From Sinohyriopsis cumingii (taxonomy: Eukaryota > Mollusca > Bivalvia > Unionida > Unionidae), in the NCBI GenBank assembly GCA_028554795.2, contig CM068839.1, positions 17,498,043 to 17,562,042 of the forward strand: a stretch of DNA of 64,000 nt, given 5' to 3'. The position numbers and the translations under genes were made by a program. Position 1 is the stretch's first letter; every line of letters begins with the position of its first letter. The notes beneath the pieces were generated by a model. That model ran no database searches, was not told where the DNA came from, and worked only from the letters and a program-made list of their open reading frames with translations. Positions 1 through 49,545 of this stretch are shown here, piece by piece.

Positions 1-391
1 GTCCCTTTTTTTTCTTGTATCCTTTTCCCGTTGCCTTTTTTAGTGCCATTCCAGCTGCAGTTCCAACTGCACCGAGTGCTGCGGCTTTTGCTACGGCTGG
101 TGCTGCCGCGGCAATCAACGCCGGTATTGCTGCGAGAAGAGGAAATATTCCACCGGTTTTAGTCATGTCCTTGATAGCTGCAGCAGAGAAATCAAGTCGG
201 ACACCGGTTTTTGCTGTTAGTGCCTTATTAAAATGTTTAAGCTGAGTATTAGTCAACGACAATTTGTTTGGACCACCAGTAATCTGATCTCGTTTTAGTG
301 TTATTGATGTCCCGCACGTGCTTGCGTTCTTTGATTGCAATTTCTTCGTTTGACCGGAAGTCAAGGTGACATTAACATGACTGTATGACAT
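1..391 (-). CDS. pX-like small virion protein, C-terminus beyond the left edge (partial)
   Basis: An ORF reads from an ATG at 391-389 down to base 1, 130 codons with no stop, and is cut by the window edge. The N-terminal half is polar with Lys and Thr and contains a segment starting LSLTNTQLKHF. Residues about 79-118 form a Gly/Ala-rich hydrophobic stretch starting GGIFPLLAAIP, and the visible end is strongly basic (KKATGKGYKKKKG). A polar leader, a hydrophobic GG-F-P-L-L segment and a basic tail resemble the adenovirus pX-like proteins described in adintoviruses and related elements. Those are thought to be membrane-active or DNA-condensing virion components. It lies 28 bp downstream of the capsid gene and is likely a late gene. 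The family assignment rests on architecture and motif memory, not on a search. Confidence 0.6.
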   Translation of the reverse strand, partial: MSYSHVNVTLTSGQTKKLQSKNASTCGTSITLKRDQITGGPNKLSLTNTQLKHFNKALTAKTGVRLDFSAAAIKDMTKTGGIFPLLAAIPALIAAAAPAVAKAAALGAVGTAAGMALKKATGKGYKKKKG

Positions 392-418
392 TATATCCTA
401 AGTTTGATTTTAATTGCG

Positions 419-1759
419 TTACATATTCTCGATTGGAGCGTCGATGACCCTCATTCGTCCGCCAACACCTTCAAGCAGCATTGCTTTATCGGAGAGTATG
501 ACAGCAATCGCTCTGTAACCACCAGCAGGAACACCTACACGAGCTCGGAAATGTAGGTCGACAACAGATTGTTTAACCAGATCAAGATGTTCCAGCGAAA
601 AGTAATAAATCGGATATAAACTCATAAAGTCTCGCTGTGATATTTGCAGGCCAGTGTCTACATTAAGGTCGCGCCCCATAAATGACATCAGACGATGATA
701 CGCGCGTGCGACACGATGATGTTCGAAATCTATTAATATATCCTCAGATGGCTCCTGATGCCCATTTATTCTCAACGAAACTTCAGAAACTCCAAGTGTA
801 TCAAATACCATTGGATTTCTTTCCTGGCTATCTGTTCTAGCACGGTATTGAAATGCAATGAAAATATGTCGTGGTGCTGATACTCCTTGTTGCGATGATA
901 TATGCCATGTAAACAACCCACCATTATCACCCTGAATAACGTCTGTGGTTGTTGTTTTCCAGGATAGCAGTGATTTACCGCCCGTGTCCATGAAAGACAA
1001 CAGTCGTTGTTCTTCGGTGATTGACGGAGACAACACTGGCATCCACAACCACAGTTTAGTTAGTATTACCTGACCAGGGGCAACAGCAGCATCTCGCCAG
1101 ATAGCGTCATTATCATCAGGTTTTCGCACAAGTACAACTGTGTGTTTGGCACCGAATATGACCTTGTGGACATCTCTGCAGAATCCAAAGATGTGAGACA
1201 ATGGAATCACACCTGAGAACTCTTCATCTCCACTTAACATCGATCTACGTGTTGCAAAACCCAAATTAAAATTTTCGTTCATCGATGCAACTGCGTCACC
1301 GGCATTATTCATTGTTACATTCCTGTTCTCGGGGCTGTCGGTTATATCCTTTGCAAACATCATTGATGGTCCGGCTGATCTGGTGTAATCATCCGAGTAT
1401 CTCGCCAACCCGAGAATTGTTGTGGCAACGTCGACGTTATCATGAATTGTTTCAATTTCTTTTCCATCTATCATGTAAATAGCGGATTTAAATAACGCCA
1501 TGATGCCGTTGTTAACAAATCCAACTCGGTCGCCGATTCCGTAGTTAGTGTTATCATTCTTTAAAAGCCTACCTTCAACTTCGATGAAGGCCTCAGCGGG
1601 CAAGAAGTATCTACTTGTATCCTGGACCTGTAGTTCAATTCTTCCGCGTTGGTTAGGATCACGTGCTTCATAAGAATAATATTGAAAATCACGTACAGAA
1701 TCATCTTTAAGTACTGGTTTGGACATATCAAACGCGTCATTGGATTTTCGTGCAAACAT
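419..1759 (-). CDS. Putative double jelly-roll major capsid protein
   Basis: The product is about 446 residues if translation starts at the ATG at 1759-1757, giving an N-terminus MFARKSNDAFDMSKPVLKD. An upstream in-frame ATG at 1810 would add 17 residues and overlap the stop of the preceding gene by 14 bp, so 1759 is preferred. Recognisable stretches include VGFVNNGIMALFKSAIY, VIPLSHIFGFCRDV and TVVLVRKPDDNDAIW. They match my recollection of a capsid-like family seen in endogenous elements of cnidarians, arthropods and molluscs. Size, beta-rich composition and lack of membrane segments fit a double jelly-roll hexon-like shell protein that forms trimeric capsomers. Position next to pX-like and minor virion genes supports this. 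No internal stops or frameshifts are seen. Structure prediction would settle the fold. Confidence 0.65.
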   Translation of the reverse strand: MFARKSNDAFDMSKPVLKDDSVRDFQYYSYEARDPNQRGRIELQVQDTSRYFLPAEAFIEVEGRLLKNDNTNYGIGDRVGFVNNGIMALFKSAIYMIDGKEIETIHDNVDVATTILGLARYSDDYTRSAGPSMMFAKDITDSPENRNVTMNNAGDAVASMNENFNLGFATRRSMLSGDEEFSGVIPLSHIFGFCRDVHKVIFGAKHTVVLVRKPDDNDAIWRDAAVAPGQVILTKLWLWMPVLSPSITEEQRLLSFMDTGGKSLLSWKTTTTDVIQGDNGGLFTWHISSQQGVSAPRHIFIAFQYRARTDSQERNPMVFDTLGVSEVSLRINGHQEPSEDILIDFEHHRVARAYHRLMSFMGRDLNVDTGLQISQRDFMSLYPIYYFSLEHLDLVKQSVVDLHFRARVGVPAGGYRAIAVILSDKAMLLEGVGGRMRVIDAPIENM

Positions 1760-1796
1760 TATTATTATTTGTGATGATCTAATTAAAATGTTATCG

Positions 1797-2255
1797 TCAC
1801 CGGAAACCACTACCAGCTATCAAATTAGCAGTTACACTATCTTGCAACGCTTTGGAGGTAATTCCTGCTGTTGCGATCTCAGCTAATTTCTGATTTACGG
1901 CCTTATTTACTACGCTACTAACATTTGCCGGCATAGCTTCAGTGGATGGTAGTTTTACTGGCACCAACCTCTCGACTGGGTTTTTTTTTCGTATCAGCTG
2001 TGCTAGTCGATCCTTGATTGATTGAAATGCTTTCCCGGCAAGACTACCAACAGTGCCAATGGCTTTATCCTTGACAACATCAGCGGCTTTCATCGCGAAT
2101 TGTTTTGCTAACGGTCCAGCTTTCGGAGCGATTCTTGTGACTAAATCCCTAACAACATCACCGACTCCATCTCCGTAAACAACCTCGTATACTGGTAATC
2201 GTGAGTTTACTACTCTGACACTTCTTGGTCTGCGAAAAGAATCGTGTAGTATCAT
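1797..2255 (-). CDS. Small Ala/Lys-rich virion-associated protein (minor capsid or core candidate)
   Basis: A 152-codon ORF starts at 2255. The N-terminus is basic (about residues 1-20), followed by a Gly/Asp patch (VYGDGVGDVVRDL). Residues about 38-90 are a long amphipathic Ala/Lys/Val stretch with predicted helix character, ending in a basic IRKKNP motif. The C-terminal third is Ala/Val/Thr-rich. There is no signal peptide and no transmembrane segment. In related animal elements a short basic amphipathic protein lies beside the capsid gene and is compared with adenovirus pVI or pVII. Here that is inference from position and composition. Its stop codon lies 37 bp before the preferred capsid start, consistent with co-ordinated expression. 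Confidence 0.5.
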   Translation of the reverse strand: MILHDSFRRPRSVRVVNSRLPVYEVVYGDGVGDVVRDLVTRIAPKAGPLAKQFAMKAADVVKDKAIGTVGSLAGKAFQSIKDRLAQLIRKKNPVERLVPVKLPSTEAMPANVSSVVNKAVNQKLAEIATAGITSKALQDSVTANLIAGSGFR

Positions 2256-2304
2256 TTTATTTAATTATTGTTTATCTAACTGAATTTGCTAGCAAATTTA
2301 ATTA

Positions 2305-3339
2305 TTAGTCGCTGTGGTAACCGTCTGCGAGTTCATCAATGAGCCCCCGGTAGATGCTGATATCCATGATGCCACGCTGAAATAGTCTCTGACAGATATC
2401 TGCGGCTTCATTTATAATTTCCGGAGAATTGTTTCCGGCACGTCTTCCTCCGATGAGAACTTCCAACCGTGATACATCATCGATGATATTATTAGGGCAG
2501 GCAATAAAACCGGATCCTAAACCCTCCCCTGTTGATGGTACAATTCTTGGGGATAAAATGTCTTGAGGCAAACTTTCAGAAGATGTTGTTAAGCTAATTA
2601 TCGGCGACCTAGTTTGTTTGAATTTTTGGCCCCGCGGACTTCCTTCAGATGCAGCCTCGTATTCACTTAACGGAGTTAGGTCAGGATCTATTGCTCTTCG
2701 CCGTGAAGGATATTGTTGTCGTTCTGTGTGTTGCAACGGTGATTTTTCTTCTTGAGGTTGCGATGGTGGAATTTCAAGTTTACGTATAGCATCTACAAGT
2801 CTATCGTATTTTGTATCGTCCCTGCTGATTTGTTTTTTATTTTCACGTATACGATACGAATATTTGATAAAATTATCATCTGTCATAGAACCGTGTTCTG
2901 GGTTTAAAGACACATCTCTTCTAATCAATCCTAACAGTATTGTCTCAGGTAATTTCTCTTCTGGTACATTTTTAAGAAGTTCAATATAATCCGGCGTAAA
3001 TCTTTTGGCGGGGTCAGTAATTCTCCCTGTTACTCGCTTACCAGCAGGTACTGACACAACAACTTCATCGGGTGGAGGCGGGGGTTTAAGTCCAGCTGAA
3101 ATATCCTGTAAAATTTTCCTTTGCTCTATTAAAGCCTCTTTGGTAACAGCTGCGGATTTTTCAGTAGCTTTGGTCACGGGTTTAAATAATTCCTCCGTAG
3201 TCTCTGCAAAGCCTTCCCGTGCTTGCTGTCTTAGTTGTAATTTTTGTCTGACACTATCACGGACAGGAAGAAATTTCTGAATTGCTTCGAGACGTTCTCG
3301 AGCTAATCTAGTCGTATGTGCTTCTCCAATATTTGCCAT
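2305..3339 (-). CDS. Conserved coiled-coil virion/accessory protein of the viral element
   Basis: The ORF has 344 codons and starts at 3339. Residues 1-85 are highly charged and helical, opening MANIGEAHTTRLARERLEAI, with heptad-like Leu/Ala spacing and many Lys/Glu/Gln consistent with a coiled coil. A proline patch (KPPPPPDE, about 84-91) follows, then a basic globular part, a Ser/Pro/Arg-rich low-complexity segment (about 195-270) and a conserved-looking C-terminal helical domain containing RLEVLIGGRRAGNNSPEI. Proteins with a similar N-terminus and a C-terminal AGNNSPEI-type motif accompany capsid genes in other animal elements as far as I recall, without known function. It is the first gene of the visible block and is divergent from the hairpin-rich segment beyond 3340. 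Confidence 0.55.
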   Translation of the reverse strand: MANIGEAHTTRLARERLEAIQKFLPVRDSVRQKLQLRQQAREGFAETTEELFKPVTKATEKSAAVTKEALIEQRKILQDISAGLKPPPPPDEVVVSVPAGKRVTGRITDPAKRFTPDYIELLKNVPEEKLPETILLGLIRRDVSLNPEHGSMTDDNFIKYSYRIRENKKQISRDDTKYDRLVDAIRKLEIPPSQPQEEKSPLQHTERQQYPSRRRAIDPDLTPLSEYEAASEGSPRGQKFKQTRSPIISLTTSSESLPQDILSPRIVPSTGEGLGSGFIACPNNIIDDVSRLEVLIGGRRAGNNSPEIINEAADICQRLFQRGIMDISIYRGLIDELADGYHSD

Positions 3340-3735
3340 TATTTATTTGTCAATGATTTAATTCCGCTAACATAAAAATGTTTTTCCTTGGAAACTCATT
3401 TCCCAGAGCAGCAGAGGGGATGGACCCGACCCATGGATTTTTCAATAACGACCCCGCCACGGAAACTGTTTCAGATTTATTGAAGTAACCCAAGTTGTCA
3501 GTGCAAACTCAACGAGTTTGTCCCTGGAAACTCTTCGAGTTTTCGGGGGACATTTTTTTTTGTCCTGTATTCTGAATAGAAGGGTTTATTTCGTCGAAAT
3601 AAGCCCTCTATCGAGGAATAGTTTCCTGGAGGGGTTTATTGTGCAAAAAGTTTCGGTCTGTACAGCCCCTCTGCTGCTATTATGTATGGTGGTAATTAGG
3701 TCTTTTTTATTTTACACTGGTGGATATGGCTAATT
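3340..3735. promoter_or_regulatory. Hairpin-rich non-coding segment at the edge of the viral element
   Basis: No ORF is convincing here. A 13-bp inverted repeat, AGCAGCAGAGGGG, lies at 3407-3419 with its complement at 3666-3678. Inside it are a hairpin at 3504-3520 (7-bp stem, AAC loop), a hairpin at 3528-3542 (6-bp stem, TTC loop, same AAACTC/GAGTTT stem), and a nearly perfect 13-bp-arm palindrome at 3581-3607. GGAAACT occurs at 3390, 3461 and 3526, and inverted at 3620-3626. Such density suggests a promoter, origin or remnant of a terminal repeat; which one cannot be told from sequence alone. Confidence 0.5.
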
Positions 3736-4860: not shown

Positions 4861-5296
4861 CAATACACTGGTAAGAGAAACTCAGTTCCTTGTATAGTGT
4901 AGGTTTATGGAAATACACTAATAAATGCTGGAATTACACTGGAATTGAAGAATTCAAATCTAGTACTAAATTGGAGCTAAACTGGATTGACATTGGCAAG
5001 TCTCGGTCCATACATTTGATTGATTTTTCCATCTGACAGTATACTGGTGATAATAAAAACTAGCATGGTGTCAGCCTCTTACCAGTATGCTGATAGCTTG
5101 ATACTCTTACCGGTATGTTGTCAGAGCATCAAACAACACACTATACACTGCTTTAATAATATTGGAAAAACTGATTTCCATATATTGTCAATTTTTGTCA
5201 GTGCAATCCTGAAACAAGAATATGCTAAGTGTATTAGCAGTGTCATTTTTTGCCACAAAGTGACAAATATTAGCTTGTAATTACTGACATTTAACA

Positions 5297-5540
5297 GGGG
5301 CCCCGAGTGGCCGAGTGGTCTAAAGCGCTCTCCGTTATGGATCACTGCCATCTCACCTCTGTCTGCGTGGGTTCAAGTCTCGGATTCGGCTAATGTGGGT
5401 ATGTGAGAAAGCTTGCCAGTAGCTTCTCATGGGTCAGTGGTTCTTTCCAGGGTTTTCCCGGGTTCTTCCTCCACCATTAATACTGGCCGCCATGTATAGC
5501 CTATCTTGTGCTGAAAAATGGCGTTAAACCCTACAACAAC
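5297..5540 (+). mobile_element. tRNA-derived SINE with Meta-SINE-like tail, copy 1
   Basis: The element begins GGGGCCCCGAGTGGCCGAG. A tRNA Leu/Ser-like box A (TGGCCGAGTGGTCTAAAGCG) and a box B (GGTTCAAGTCTC) lie in the head. The body and tail contain CCACCATTAATACTGGCCGC and GGCGTTAAACCC followed by ACAAC repeats, the pattern of the animal Meta-SINE domain. It is flanked by a perfect 12-bp target-site duplication, TGACATTTAACA, at 5285-5296 and 5541-5552. The intact duplication indicates a fairly recent insertion. Confidence 0.9.
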
Positions 5541-5589
5541 TGACATTTAACACATGTTTAAGGACCTGGTTACATGATCTAGGATCATA

Positions 5590-6928: not shown

Positions 6929-7180
6929 CAGGGGCCCCAAGTGGCCGAGTGGTCTAAAGCGCTCTCCGTTACGGATCACTGCCATCTCACCTTTGTCTGC
7001 ATGGGTTCGAGTCTCGGATTCAGCCAATGTGGGTATGTGAGAAAGCTTGCCAGTAGCTTCTCATGGGTCGGTGGTTCTTTCCGGTATTTTCCCAGGTTCT
7101 TCCTCCACCATTAATACTGGCTGCCATGTATAGCCTATCTTATGCTGAAAAATGGCGTTAAACCCTACAACAACTACAAC
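6929..7180 (+). mobile_element. tRNA-derived SINE with Meta-SINE-like tail, copy 2
   Basis: It has the same head, body and ACAAC tail as the copy at 5297, with few differences. A 13-bp duplication, TTTACCATGTCTG, at 6916-6928 and 7181-7193 shows it inserted into a unit of the 52-bp minisatellite. The array is therefore older than the insertion. Confidence 0.9.
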
Positions 7181-11169: not shown

Positions 11170-12285
11170 TGGCTTATAATATTGTATTGCATCATTGGTA
11201 CATATGGTAATGTGTCACTTATTGTATGGGGCTGTCACTGATGATATATAATAATCTGCCATATATTGCATGGGGTTATCATTGGATATGTATGGTAATG
11301 TGCTTCTTATTGCATGGATTTATCATTGGATATGTATGGTAATGTGACACTTATTGCATGGATTTATCATTGGATAGATAAGGTAATGTGCCAGTTATTG
11401 CATGGGGTTATCATTGAATATATATGGCAATGTGACACTTATTGCATGGATTTATCATTGGATATGTATGGTAATGTGACACTTATTGCATGGATTTATC
11501 ATTGGATATGTATGGTAATGTGACACTTATTGCATGGATTTATCATTGGATATGTATGGTAATGTGACACTTATTGCATGGATTTATCATTGGATATATA
11601 TGGTAATGTGCCAGTTATTGCATGGGGTTATCATTGGATATGTATGGTAATGTGCCAGTTATTGCATGGATTTATCATTGGATAGATAAGGTAATGTGAC
11701 ACTTATTGCATGGGGTTATCATTGAATATATATGGTAATGTGACACTTATTGCATGGATTTATCATTGGATATATATGGTAATGTGACACTTATTGCATG
11801 GGGTTATCATTGGATATGTATGGTAATGTGACACTTATTGCATGGGGTTATCATTGGATATATATGGTAATGTGACACTTATTGCATGGGGTTATCATTG
11901 GATATGTATGGTAATGTGCCAGTTATTGCATGGGGTTATCATTGGATAGATAAGGTAATGTGCCAGTTATTGCATGGGGTTATCATTGGATATATATGGT
12001 AATGTGCCAGTTATTGCATGGGGTTATCATTGGATATATATGGTAATGTGACACTTATTGCATGGATTTATCATTGGATATGTATGGTAATGTGCCAGTT
12101 ATTGCATGGGGTTATCATTGGATATATATGGTAATGTGCCAGTTATTGCATGGGGTTATCATTGGATATATATGGTAATGTGCCAGTTATTGCATGGGGT
12201 TATCATTGGATATATATGGTAATGTGCCAGTTATTGCATGGGGTTATCATTGGATATATATGGTAATGTGACACTTATTGCATGT
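11170..12285. repeat. Minisatellite of 44-bp units, about 25 copies
   Basis: Units contain TTATCATTGGATATGTATGG, TAATGTGACACTTATTGCAT and alternate GGGG/GGAT and GACACT/GCCAGT versions. The variants are interleaved, which suggests local unit exchange. Confidence 0.9.
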
Positions 12286-31630: not shown

Positions 31631-34600
31631 AGGTTCCCCCTGCTGGTACAGGAATGTAGAATAGGCTGGATGTTCTCCCTTGCTGGTACAGGAAGCTAGA
31701 ATTTGCTTTATGTTACCCCATGCTTGTAAAGGAATGTAGAATAAGCTTGAAGTTTCCCCTGCTGGTACAGGAATGTAGAATAGGCTTGATGTTCCCCCTG
31801 CTGGTACAGGAATATAGAATAGGCTTGATGTTCCACCTGCTGGTACAGGAATATAGAATAGGCTTGATGTTCCACCTGCTGCTACAGGAATGTAGAATAG
31901 GCTTGATGTTCCACCTGCTGCTACAGGAATGTAGAATAGGCTTGATGTTCCACCTGCTGCTACAGGAATGTAGAATAGGCTTGATGTTCAACCTGCTGCT
32001 ACAGGAATGTAGAATAGGCTTGATGTTCCACCTGCTGGTATATGGATGTAGAATAGGCTTGATGTTCCACCTGCTGGTATATGGATGCAAAATAGGCTTG
32101 GTTTTCCCAGGCTGGTACAGGAATGTAGAATAGGCTTTATGTTCCTCTTCCTGGTACAGGAATGTTGAATAGGCTTGATGTTCCCCCCTGCTGGTACAGG
32201 AATGTAGAATAGGCTGTATGTTCCCCCTTGCTGGTACAGGAAGCTAGAATTTGCTTTATGTTACCCCATGCTTATAAAGGAATGTAGAATAAGCTTGAAG
32301 TTTCCCCTGCTGGTACATGAATGTAGAATAGGCTTGATGTTCCTCTTGCTGGTACAGGAATATAGAATAGGCTTTACATTCCCCTTTGATGGTACAGGAG
32401 TGTAGAATAGGCTTGATGTTCCTCTTGCTGGTACGGAAATGTAGAATAGGCTAGATGTTCCTCTTGATGGTACATGAATGTAGAATAGGCTTGATGTTCC
32501 CCCTTGATGGTACAGGAATGTAGAATAGGCTTGATGTTCCTGTTGATGGTACAGGAATGTAGAATAGGCTTGATGTTTCTCTTGATGGTACAGGAATGTA
32601 GAATAGGCTTGATGTTCCACCTTGAAGGTACAGGAATGTAGAATAGGCTAGATGTTCCTCTTGCTGGTACAGGAATGTAGAATAGGCTTGATGTTCCTGT
32701 TGATGGTACAGGAATGTAGAATAGGCTTGATGTTCCTCTTGATGGTACAGGAATGTTGAATAGGCTTGATGTTCCTCTTGATGGTACAAGAATGTAGAAT
32801 AGGCTTGATGTTCCTGTTGATGGTACAGGAATGTAGAATAGGCTAGATGTTCCTCTTGATGGTACAGGAATGTAGAATAGGCTGTATGTTCCCCCTTGCT
32901 GGTACAGGAAGCTAGAATTTGCTTTATGTTACCCCATGCTTGTAAAGGAATGTAGAATAAGCTTGAAGTTTCCCCTGCTGGTACATGAATGTAGAATAGG
33001 CTTGATGTTCCTCTTGCTGGTACAGGAATATAGAATAGGCTTTACGTTCCCCTTTGATGGTACAGGAGTGTAGAATAGGCTTTATGTTCCCCCTTGATGG
33101 TACAAGAATGTAGAATAAGCGTAATGTTCCCCCTTGATGGTACAGGAATGTAGAATAGGCTTGATGTTCCTCTTGCTGGTACAGAAATGTAGAATAGGCT
33201 AGATGTTCCTCTTGATGGTACATGAATGTAGAATAGGCTTTATGTTCCCCCTTGATGGTACAGGAATGTAGAATAGGCTTGATGTTTCTCTTGATGGTAC
33301 AGGAATGTAGAATAGGCTTGATGTTCCACCTTGATGGTACAGGAATGTAGAATAGGCTTGATGTTCCTCTTGCTGGTACAGGAATGTAGAATAGGCTTGA
33401 TGTTCCTGTTGATGGTACAGGAATGTTGAATAGGCTTGATGTTCCTGTTGATGGTACAGGAATGTTGAATAGGCTTGATGTTCCTCTTGATGGTACAAGA
33501 ATGTAGAATAGGCTTGATGTTCCTGTTGATGGTACAGGAATGTAGAATAGGCTAGATGTTCCTCTTGATGGTACAGGAATGTAGAATAGGCTGTATGTTC
33601 CCCCTTGCTGGTACAGGAAGCTAGAATTTGCTTTATGTTACCCCATGCTTGTAAAGGAATGTAGAATAAGCTTGAAGTTTCCCCTGCTGGTACATGAATG
33701 TGGAATAGGCTTGATGTTCCTCTTGCTGGTACAGGAATATAGAATAGGCTTTACGTTCCCCTTTGATGGTACAGGAGTGTAGAATAGGCTTTATGTTCCC
33801 CCTTGATGGTACAAGAATGTAGAATAAGCATAATGTTCCCCCTTGATGGTACAGGAATGTAGAATAGGCTTGATGTTCCTCTTGCTGGTACAGAAATGTA
33901 GAATTGGCTAGATGTTCCTCTTGATGGTACAGGAATGTAGAATAGGCTTGATGTTCCCCCTTGATGGTACAGGAATGTAGAATAGGCTTGATGTTCTTCT
34001 TGCTGGTACAGGAATGTAGAATAGGCTTGATGTTCCTGTTGATGGTACAGGAATGTAGAATAGGCTTGATGTTCCTCTTGATGGTACAAGAATGTAGAAT
34101 AGGCTTGATGTTCCTCTTGATGGTACAGGAATGTAGAATAGGCTTGATGTTCCTGTTGATGGTACAGGAATGTAGAATAGGCTTGATGTTCCTCTTGATG
34201 TACAGGAATGTAGAATAGGCTGGATGTTCCTCTTGATGGTACAGGAATGTAGAATAGGCTTTATGTTCCCCCTTGATGGTACAGGAATGTAGAATAGGCT
34301 TGATGTTCCTCTTGATGGTACAAGAATGTAGAATAGGCTTGATGTTCCTGTTGATGGTAAAGGAATGTAGAATAGGCTAGATGTTCCTCTTGATGGTACA
34401 GGAATGTAGAATAGGCTTGATGTTCCTGTTGATGGTACAGGAATGTAGAATAGGCTTGATATTCCACCTGCTGGTATATGGATGTAGAATAGGCTTGATG
34501 TTCCACCTGCTGGTATATGGATGCAAAATAGGCTTGGTGTTCCCCGGCTGGTACAGGAATGTAGAATAGGCTAGATGTTCTACCTGCTGGTACAGGAATA

Positions 34601-34730
34601 CAGGAATGTAGAATAGGCTTGATGTTTCACCTGCTGGTACAGGAATATATAATAGGCTTGATATTCTACCTGCTGATACAGGCATGTAGAATAGGCCTGA
34701 CACTCACCTAGCTGGTACAGAGCATTGCAA
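31631..34730. repeat. 3.1 kb satellite array of 39-bp units
   Basis: About 79 units carry TGTTCCTCTTGATGGTACAG and GAATGTAGAATAGGCTTGA. A distinctive variant with AGGAAGCTAGAATTTGCTTT, then CCCCATGCTTGTAAAGG, recurs near 31677, 32224, 32891 and 33600, so there is a higher-order repeat of about 550-710 bp. The 39-bp unit equals 13 codons, so repetitive ORFs (HQEEHQAYSTFLY on the minus strand, VQECRIGLMF on the plus strand) arise on both strands. They have no start, splice or domain context and are not called as genes. Confidence 0.95.
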
Positions 34731-47850: not shown

Positions 47851-48389
47851 TATATCTAAATCTATCTTATAACACACCTGTATCTATTTTGATGTCTGTC
47901 TAGCTCTTTATCTCACTGATAGTCTATCTGTCTAACATCTGTAGAATACAATCCTATATTGTCTATAAAATTTATGTATACATTTTAATATTGTATAGGT
48001 AAAAATTGTTAATTATAATTTTCAGCCTATTCCAAATCACAAATATTTGCAAATGATATGTAAGAAAAAGTTCTCCAGACAAAAAAGGTAAAGCAAAATG
48101 AAATACTTTTTATTTCTATAGATCAGTGAAAGTGTGCAAACATTTAGAGGGTTAAAAAAAATTACACATACAAAGGTAATATGTGTATGTGAGCTTATTG
48201 TGGTAATCTGTTTATAATTCCAGTAAAAATTAACATTATTAATTAATGACAATAGCATTTTAAACAAATGCAGTCTGGATTCAAAAGTCTAAGTTGTCTG
48301 ACAATCATAAACTTTTAAGTTCATCTGTGTCATTCTTATGAAACATTTGAAAAACTGTTTGAAAGTGCATATAATTTCTAAACAAGACA

Positions 48390-49545
48390 ATCCATTTCCA
48401 TAACATCAAAGACAATATATTTGGATAACTTCAAAGACAATCCATTTGCATAACTTCAAAGACAATCCATTTCCATAATGTCAAATACAATCCATTTTCA
48501 CAATGTCAAAGACAATCCATTTCCATAATGTCAGAGACAATCCATTTCCATAACGTCAAAGACAATCCATTTCCAAAACATCAAAGACAATCTATTTCCA
48601 TAACATCAAAGACAATCCATTTCCATAATGTCAAAGACAATCCACTTCCATAATGTCAAAGACAATCCATTTCCATAACGTCAAAGACAATCCATTTCCA
48701 TAATGACAAATACAATCCATTTCCATGACATCAAAGACAATCCATTTCCATAATGACAAATACAATCCATTTCCATAACATCAAAGACAATTAATTTCCA
48801 TAACGTCAAAGACAATCCATTTCCATAATGTCAAAGACAATCTATTTCCATAATGTCAAAGACAATCCATTTCCATAACGTCAAAGACAATCTATTTCGA
48901 TAATGTCAAAGACAATCCATTTCCATGACATCAAAGACAATCCATTTCCAAAATATCAAAGACAATCTATTTTGATAATGTCAAAGACAATCCATTTCCA
49001 TAACATCAAAGACAATCTATTTCGATAATGTCAAAGACAATCCATTTCCATGACATCAAAGACAATCCATTTCCAAAATATCAAAGATAATCTATTTTGA
49101 TAATGTCAAAGACAATCCATTTCCATAACATCAAAGACAATCTATTTCCATAATGTCAAAGACAATCCATTTCCATAATGTCAAAGACAATCCATTTCCA
49201 TAACGTCAAAGACAATCTATTTCCATAACGTCAAAGACAATCCATTTTCATAACGGCAAAGACAATCCATTTCCGTAATGTCAAAGATAATTTGTTTCCA
49301 TAATGTCAAAGACAATCCATTTCCATAATGTCAAATACAATCTATTTCCATAATGTCAAAGACAATCCATTTCCATAACGTCAAAGACAATCCATTTCCA
49401 TAACATCAAAGACAATCTATTTCCATAATGTCAAAGACAATAAATTTCCATAACGTGAAAGACAATCCATTTCCATAATGTCAAATACAATCCATTTCCA
49501 TAATGTCAAATACAATCCATTTGCATAACTTCAAAGACAATCAAA
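48390..49545. repeat. Minisatellite of 25-bp units, about 46 copies
   Basis: Units carry AATGTCAAAGACAATCCATT and TCCAT, with point variants. The array fills over half of this 2.2 kb intron. It has no spacer variety, so it is not CRISPR-like. Confidence 0.93.

What the first reader, a model, noticed from the sequence alone, without database searches (positions are those of the whole stretch)
1..3735. Intact virion-gene block of an endogenous polinton-like/adinto-like virus next to a calcium channel gene
Four tightly packed minus-strand ORFs look like a capsid module, and the three complete ones are undisrupted while surrounding transposon relics are decayed. This suggests a young insertion or a still active lineage. 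The combination of coiled-coil protein, Ala/Lys-rich protein, putative double jelly-roll protein and pX-like protein could define an undescribed lineage in this host.
Basis: partly seen in the sequence, partly recalled or inferred. Interest (0 to 1): 0.75.

Follow-up and report, generated by a model that had tools for sequence, protein, structure and literature searches.

The report
Freshly multiplied polinton-like provirus
The genes at the left edge of the window are the capsid end of a 16.2 kb virus-like element, nearly identical copies of which are scattered through this animal genome, and its replication gene looks like a kind described mainly from viruses of single-celled organisms.

The parts
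1..3678 (-). right-hand 3,678 bp of a 16,209 bp polinton-supergroup element (C16:17485512-17501720; the remaining 12.5 kb lie left of the window)
   Evidence: shared right end in 12 of 12 fetched copies; left terminus and inverted repeat found in L022
2..391 (-). 130 aa basic Ala/Gly-rich protein (20 K+R, 3 D+E), candidate virion core or minor capsid protein; cut by the window edge, relatives of 130-131 aa exist
   Evidence: 56 homologs, best 79%; composition
422..1759 (-). 446 aa double jelly-roll major capsid protein
   Evidence: PF21738 3.1e-19; AF2 pLDDT 83.6, pTM 0.84; Foldseek and VIA-align matches to viral capsid proteins; 43 homologs
1800..2255 (-). 152 aa Ala/Lys-rich protein (24 K+R, 12 D+E), function inferred as virion-internal basic protein
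   Evidence: composition and weak BLASTP (0.016) to a 138 aa protein in the same relative position of a Maverick
2308..3339 (-). 344 aa helical protein with a strongly conserved C-terminal block of about 70 residues, candidate minor capsid protein
   Evidence: 23 homologs, alignment A4; AF2 mean pLDDT 66.4, pTM 0.31, helical
3369..3678 (.). right terminal inverted repeat, 310 bp, 309/310 identical to the left one
3679..3683 (.). 5 bp target-site duplication
   Evidence: 11 of 15 other tested copies have exactly 5 bp

Best explanation
This is an integrated, virus-like self-synthesising element of the polinton supergroup. It encodes a double jelly-roll capsid protein, a penton candidate, a packaging ATPase, a maturation-type cysteine protease, a fibre-like protein, an rve integrase and a Tlr1-like polymerase-helicase. 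Likely cycle: the polymerase-helicase copies the linear DNA from its terminal repeats, the ATPase packages it into icosahedral shells processed by the protease, and the integrase inserts it with a 5 bp duplication. Shown here: gene content, termini, duplications, capsid fold, and recent spread to very many near-identical copies. Inferred: protein-primed replication, virion formation, and whether spread is by reinfection of the germ line or by transposition inside cells.
For: Termini and duplication. Capsid. ATPase Pox_A32 1.4e-12, rve 2e-8, SF1 AAA_19 7.9e-11; Pif1-type helicases in PDB 1.5e-6. Protease: ASFV S273R 3.8e-5. Fibre-like: Phage_T7_tail 7.6e-6, PHROG tail fibre 8.4e-7. Homology to a Maverick of the same genome: capsid by hhalign 90.1% and 93.8%, controls 0.3% and 0.6%; integrase 2.4e-20 and ATPase 1.2e-11 by BLASTP. 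Youth: 95 of 95 scored copies with identical capsid protein (capped); 20 substitutions in 46,733 bp over 19 copies; polymerase frame of 1181 codons or more in 63 of 65 scored copies (capped).
Against: The polymerase palm rests on two motifs read by eye (DMTACYP, ATDS); neither piece matches PF03175 and the N piece has no PDB match. Cutting the gene at the fetch boundary weakens those tests. The penton call is weak: no Pfam match and BLASTP 0.12 to the Maverick penton. Peptidase_C5 is below its cut-off (0.0071). In this copy the penton candidate is frame-split; 47 of 150 scored copies lack an open frame of 466 aa or more, and 5 of 19 compared copies carry an indel in one of the small capsid-block genes. 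No virion, transcript or extrachromosomal DNA was seen. No relative was found in 8 viral-contig scans.
Confidence: 0.78

Rival explanations
1. A standard adintovirus/Maverick (Eupolintoviridae) with ordinary sequence divergence.
For: Same broad gene set, 16 kb size, AG-starting terminal repeats, distant capsid, integrase and ATPase homology to a Maverick in the same genome.
Against: No chromodomain in the integrase, while the Maverick integrase of the same genome gives Chromo 2.4e-7. SF1 helicase in the replicase. No PF03175 match, and the element is not among 75 scored PF03175 loci (capped). 5 bp rather than the 6 bp duplications reported for vertebrate Mavericks (PMC8097293 passages).
Confidence: 0.12
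2. A purely intracellular transposon: capsid genes are carried along and no particles form or leave the cell.
Against: Capsid proteins keep invariant columns shared with relatives of about 25-79% identity, which suggests selection on capsid function before the burst; the protease, ATPase and fibre-like gene are otherwise unexplained.
Confidence: 0.25
3. Contamination or assembly artefact rather than host-integrated DNA.
For: Near-identical copies are prone to assembly error; frame splits could be such errors, as PMC10120064 (passages) reports for protist assemblies.
Against: Right ends lie in differing flanks in 12 of 12 copies, 3 of them in (AT)n repeats. Exact 5 bp duplications in 11 of 15 other copies, on many chromosomes.
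Confidence: 0.02
4. A satellite or hyperparasite of a larger DNA virus of this animal, as suggested for virophages and some PLVs.
For: The pPolB-S1H type of replicase is shared with PLVs and transpovirons (PMC11071308 sections 10-11).
Against: It has a full-looking gene set of its own; no larger virus was looked for here.
Confidence: 0.08

Closest known systems
Tlr1 element of Tetrahymena thermophila (PMC4028283 and PMC12721341 passages; PMC11071308 section 10)
   Same: rve integrase, packaging ATPase, double jelly-roll capsid protein, polymerase-SF1 helicase replicase with motif C lacking the first Asp
   Different: Tlr has no protease (PMC4028283 passage) and its replicase ends in GIY-YIG (PMC12721341 passage); this element has a protease, a fibre-like gene and an HNH-like C-terminus (by eye), and sits in an animal genome
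Polinton-like viruses (PMC4642659, PMC7805220 passages)
   Same: capsid, ATPase, size, replicase type in part of the group
   Different: described PLVs lack the protease and, with one exception, the rve integrase (PMC4642659 passages)
Maverick/Polinton, adintoviruses, now Eupolintoviridae (PMC8097293, PMC12451622 passages; PMC11071296 section 16)
   Same: animal host, integrase, ATPase, protease, capsid fold, terminal repeats; distant sequence homology
   Different: no chromodomain, SF1-helicase replicase, 5 bp rather than 6 bp duplication
Mavirus-type virophages (mavirus capsid 6g45)
   Different: no sequence match of the capsid profile to any PDB capsid chain

Membership tests
polinton supergroup (eukaryotic DJR elements) | double jelly-roll major capsid protein | tested here: met
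polinton supergroup (eukaryotic DJR elements) | A32/FtsK-type packaging ATPase | tested here: met
   Pox_A32 1.4e-12
polinton supergroup (eukaryotic DJR elements) | single jelly-roll penton | tested here: inconclusive
   no Pfam match; BLASTP 0.12 over 68 residues; no fold was made
Maverick/Polinton | rve integrase and terminal inverted repeats | tested here: met
   rve 2e-8; 310 bp repeats
Maverick/Polinton | protein-primed PolB of the DNA_pol_B_2 kind with exonuclease | tested here: inconclusive
   no PF03175 match by either piece at E <= 1; the gene was cut at the fetch boundary
Maverick/Polinton | 6 bp target duplication (reported for vertebrate Mavericks) | tested here: not met
   5 bp in the window copy; in 15 other copies 11 have exactly 5 bp, 3 lie in (AT)n and cannot be read, 1 has none
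adintovirus (definition in PMC11071296 section 16) | integrase with C-terminal chromodomain | tested here: not met
   none at E <= 1 or 0.1; positive control Chromo 2.4e-7
adintovirus (definition in PMC11071296 section 16) | hexon recognisable by BLASTP | tested here: inconclusive
   no adintovirus hexon was held; against a Maverick capsid protein of the same genome E 1.0, C part 4.8e-4 in a set of 9 proteins
adintovirus (definition in PMC11071296 section 16) | PolB with N-terminal OTU-like domain | not tested
   no fold of the replicase was made
Tlr1-like / pPolB-S1H polinton-like virus | polymerase palm fused to a superfamily 1 helicase | tested here: inconclusive
   SF1 helicase met; one continuous frame of at least 1181 codons; palm only by motifs DMTACYP and ATDS
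Tlr1-like / pPolB-S1H polinton-like virus | absence of maturation protease in described members | tested here: not met
   protease present: ASFV S273R 3.8e-5

The most novel reading that the evidence does not exclude
An undescribed animal lineage that joins a Tlr1-type polymerase-helicase and a distinct PF21738 capsid family to the protease and integrase of Mavericks. It is active now or was very recently, with a few hundred near-identical 16 kb copies in one bivalve genome, beside a separate population of ordinary Mavericks.
Probability: 0.5. Interest if true: 0.8.

Novelty: new variant of a known kind. Interest (0 to 1): 0.64.

Why it matters
Whether animal polintons form particles is an old open question, partly because most copies are decayed: PMC8097293 (passage) counts 134 intact vertebrate elements in 17 species. 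A genome with very many near-identical, mostly open copies makes it directly testable by looking for nuclease-protected element DNA. A Tlr1-type replicase together with Maverick-type protease and integrase would also bridge groups that the literature keeps apart. For comparison, PMC10120064 (passage) reports that only 49 of 2,678 capsid genes of one protist genome were identical copies.

Tried and rejected
Relatives in public contigs: 8 viral-contig scans, 2 prokaryote-genome scans and tblastn against phages gave none. Sequence search of the capsid protein against PDB gave no capsid chain; only fold comparison did. The fold of the 344 aa protein was poor and was not searched. PHROGs gave nothing for the window proteins (best E 0.071). 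Rfam gave nothing in the window. Contamination was considered and rejected. The 130 aa protein was not matched to the Maverick candidate. I did not date the burst with a calibrated rate.

Rows dropped: A1 used 35 of 43 homologs, A2 10 of 43, A3 9 of 43, A4 19 of 23, A5 16 of 56, A6 13 of 23. TIR and TSD were tested in 15 of the 39 other scored right ends. L001-L008 were chosen because their capsid protein is identical, and L011-L021 because their right end matched best, so the divergence leans young.

Papers not held: PMC5499653, PMC8502044, PMC11426020, so the primary papers on the pPolB-S1H fusion and on adintoviruses were not seen.

Full report

Relatives. Of 43 capsid homologs, two bear species names, both freshwater mussels (Sinanodonta woodiana, Potamilus streckersoni); the rest are unnamed or automatic names, many from metagenome sources, the best full-length one 67% identical. 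Seven of 23 relatives of the 344 aa protein are named from Sinanodonta. The 130 aa protein has 56 relatives, the best 79% identical. One Sinanodonta gene model joins the 344 aa family to a stretch like the start of the 152 aa protein, so the gene order is probably shared. A capsid relative (P0004) and a relative of the 130 aa protein (P0073) are each listed with a longest contig of 5,783 bases from the same source, which suggests but does not prove one contig. Some capsid clusters hold 156 and 435 member sequences, as expected of amplified families.

Whole element. The window is C16:17498043-17562042 of a 2.9 Gb assembly. Copies share sequence with the window up to base 3678 and then part company: 12 of 12 junctions, window copy included, three of them in (AT)n. 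The matching left terminus is at L022:2470, giving 16,209 bp. The inverted repeats are 310 bp with one mismatch, and the flanks carry a 5 bp duplication. In 15 other copies a left terminus lies within 90 bp of the predicted place; 13 of 15 have inverted repeats without a difference over the 272-310 bp compared, while the other two did not align there. Eleven of 15 have exactly 5 bp duplicated, three lie in (AT)n and cannot be read, one shows none.

Genes left of the window. In L022: a packaging ATPase (Pox_A32 1.4e-12), an rve integrase (2e-8) and the C part of the replicase with SF1 helicase profiles (AAA_19 7.9e-11) and Pif1-type PDB matches, best 1.5e-6. In L009: the N part of the replicase (no family match), an HNH nuclease (HNH_3 1.2e-17), a 336 aa fibre-like protein (Phage_T7_tail 7.6e-6; PHROG tail fibre 8.4e-7; PDB tail fibre gp9 0.0022), a 190 aa hydrophobic protein, a penton candidate and a protease (Peptidase_C5 0.0071, below its cut-off; ASFV S273R 3.8e-5). 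The replicase is one continuous frame: 63 of 65 scored copies have 1181 codons or more. Its polymerase motifs DMTACYP and ATDS and an HNH-like C-terminus were read by eye. PMC11071308 (section 10) describes pPolB-S1H proteins whose motif C lacks the first Asp and which may end in HNH; that is the resemblance.

How young. The capsid search scored 95 places, all 100% identical over 446 residues without stops. If density is even, 94 copies in the 1,132 Mb of C1-C7 (lengths) scale to about 240 in 2,905 Mb; this is extrapolation. Nineteen copies compared with the window copy differ by 20 substitutions in 46,733 bp (11 nonsynonymous, 9 synonymous); 4 of 19 are identical, and 5 of 19 have an indel in one of the small genes. 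Both sets were chosen for good matches, so this leans young. At assumed neutral rates of 1e-9 to 1e-8 per site per year (recalled, not calibrated) the burst would be some 40 to 430 thousand years old.

What is broken. In the window copy the penton candidate is read in two overlapping frames (228 and 264 codons stop to stop). Of 150 scored places, 103 have an open frame of 466 aa or more and 47 do not (capped, and the query was the split form, which ranks such copies first). Intact copies therefore exist. Assembly error is possible; PMC10120064 (passages) warns of false frameshifts in such repeated elements.

Comparison with an ordinary Maverick of the same genome. PF03175 finds 75 scored pPolB loci, none of them the window element (capped). 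Flanks of one of them (L052, L053) hold a Maverick set whose integrase has a chromodomain (2.4e-7), while the new element's has none. The new capsid profile matches the two parts of that Maverick's capsid gene at hhalign probability 90.1 and 93.8; penton and integrase controls give 0.3 and 0.6. Plain BLASTP gives E 1.0 for the N part and 4.8e-4 for the C part in a set of 9 proteins. The integrases (2.4e-20) and ATPases (1.2e-11) are homologous. So it is a distant cousin, not a Maverick copy.

Placement. The element meets the supergroup criteria (capsid fold, ATPase). It fails the adintovirus chromodomain criterion and the 6 bp duplication reported for vertebrate Mavericks (PMC8097293 passages). 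It resembles Tlr1 in integrase plus polymerase-helicase, but has the protease that Tlr and described PLVs lack (PMC4028283, PMC4642659 passages). Nine paper searches listed no paper on such an element in a bivalve. The library lacks most subscription papers and the three works named under Tried and rejected, so novelty is provisional. PMC10120064 (passage) says that only cnidarian animal capsid genes fell outside the main Maverick cluster.

Host. A Cav2-type channel exon shows an animal. The only named relatives are unionid mussels. C1-C19 are the large contigs as far as lengths were shown (71.8 to 193.1 Mb for those seen). A bivalve, perhaps a freshwater mussel, is an inference.

Noticed in passing
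G000, 75 scored loci (e.g. C3:115669038-115670564): The same genome holds many ordinary Maverick polymerase genes (PF03175), a number of them with open frames near 1,359 codons: a second, separate population of such elements.
   Followed up: partly
L052: In the one Maverick whose flanks were read, the capsid gene also lies in two overlapping frames, which may be a real mutation or an assembly error.
   Followed up: no
L009, 336 aa fibre-like ORF: Its N-terminal half carries a motif shared with phage tail fibres (PF03906 7.6e-6, PHROG 2710 8.4e-7), unusual in an animal element.
   Followed up: partly
window 5295-5541 and 6929-7175: Two copies, 94% identical, of a 247 bp repeat that looks like a tRNA-derived SINE (by eye; ARAGORN finds no tRNA there).
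   Followed up: no
window 31633-34700: Large minisatellite with a 39 bp unit, about 78 copies; further arrays at 11191-12284 and 48384-49542.
   Followed up: no
fold search of the 446 aa model: An uncharacterised Cotesia bracovirus protein (R9XLG5) is among the top viral structure matches by E-value (2.1e-16, 16% identity) although its TM-score is low (0.36).
   Followed up: no
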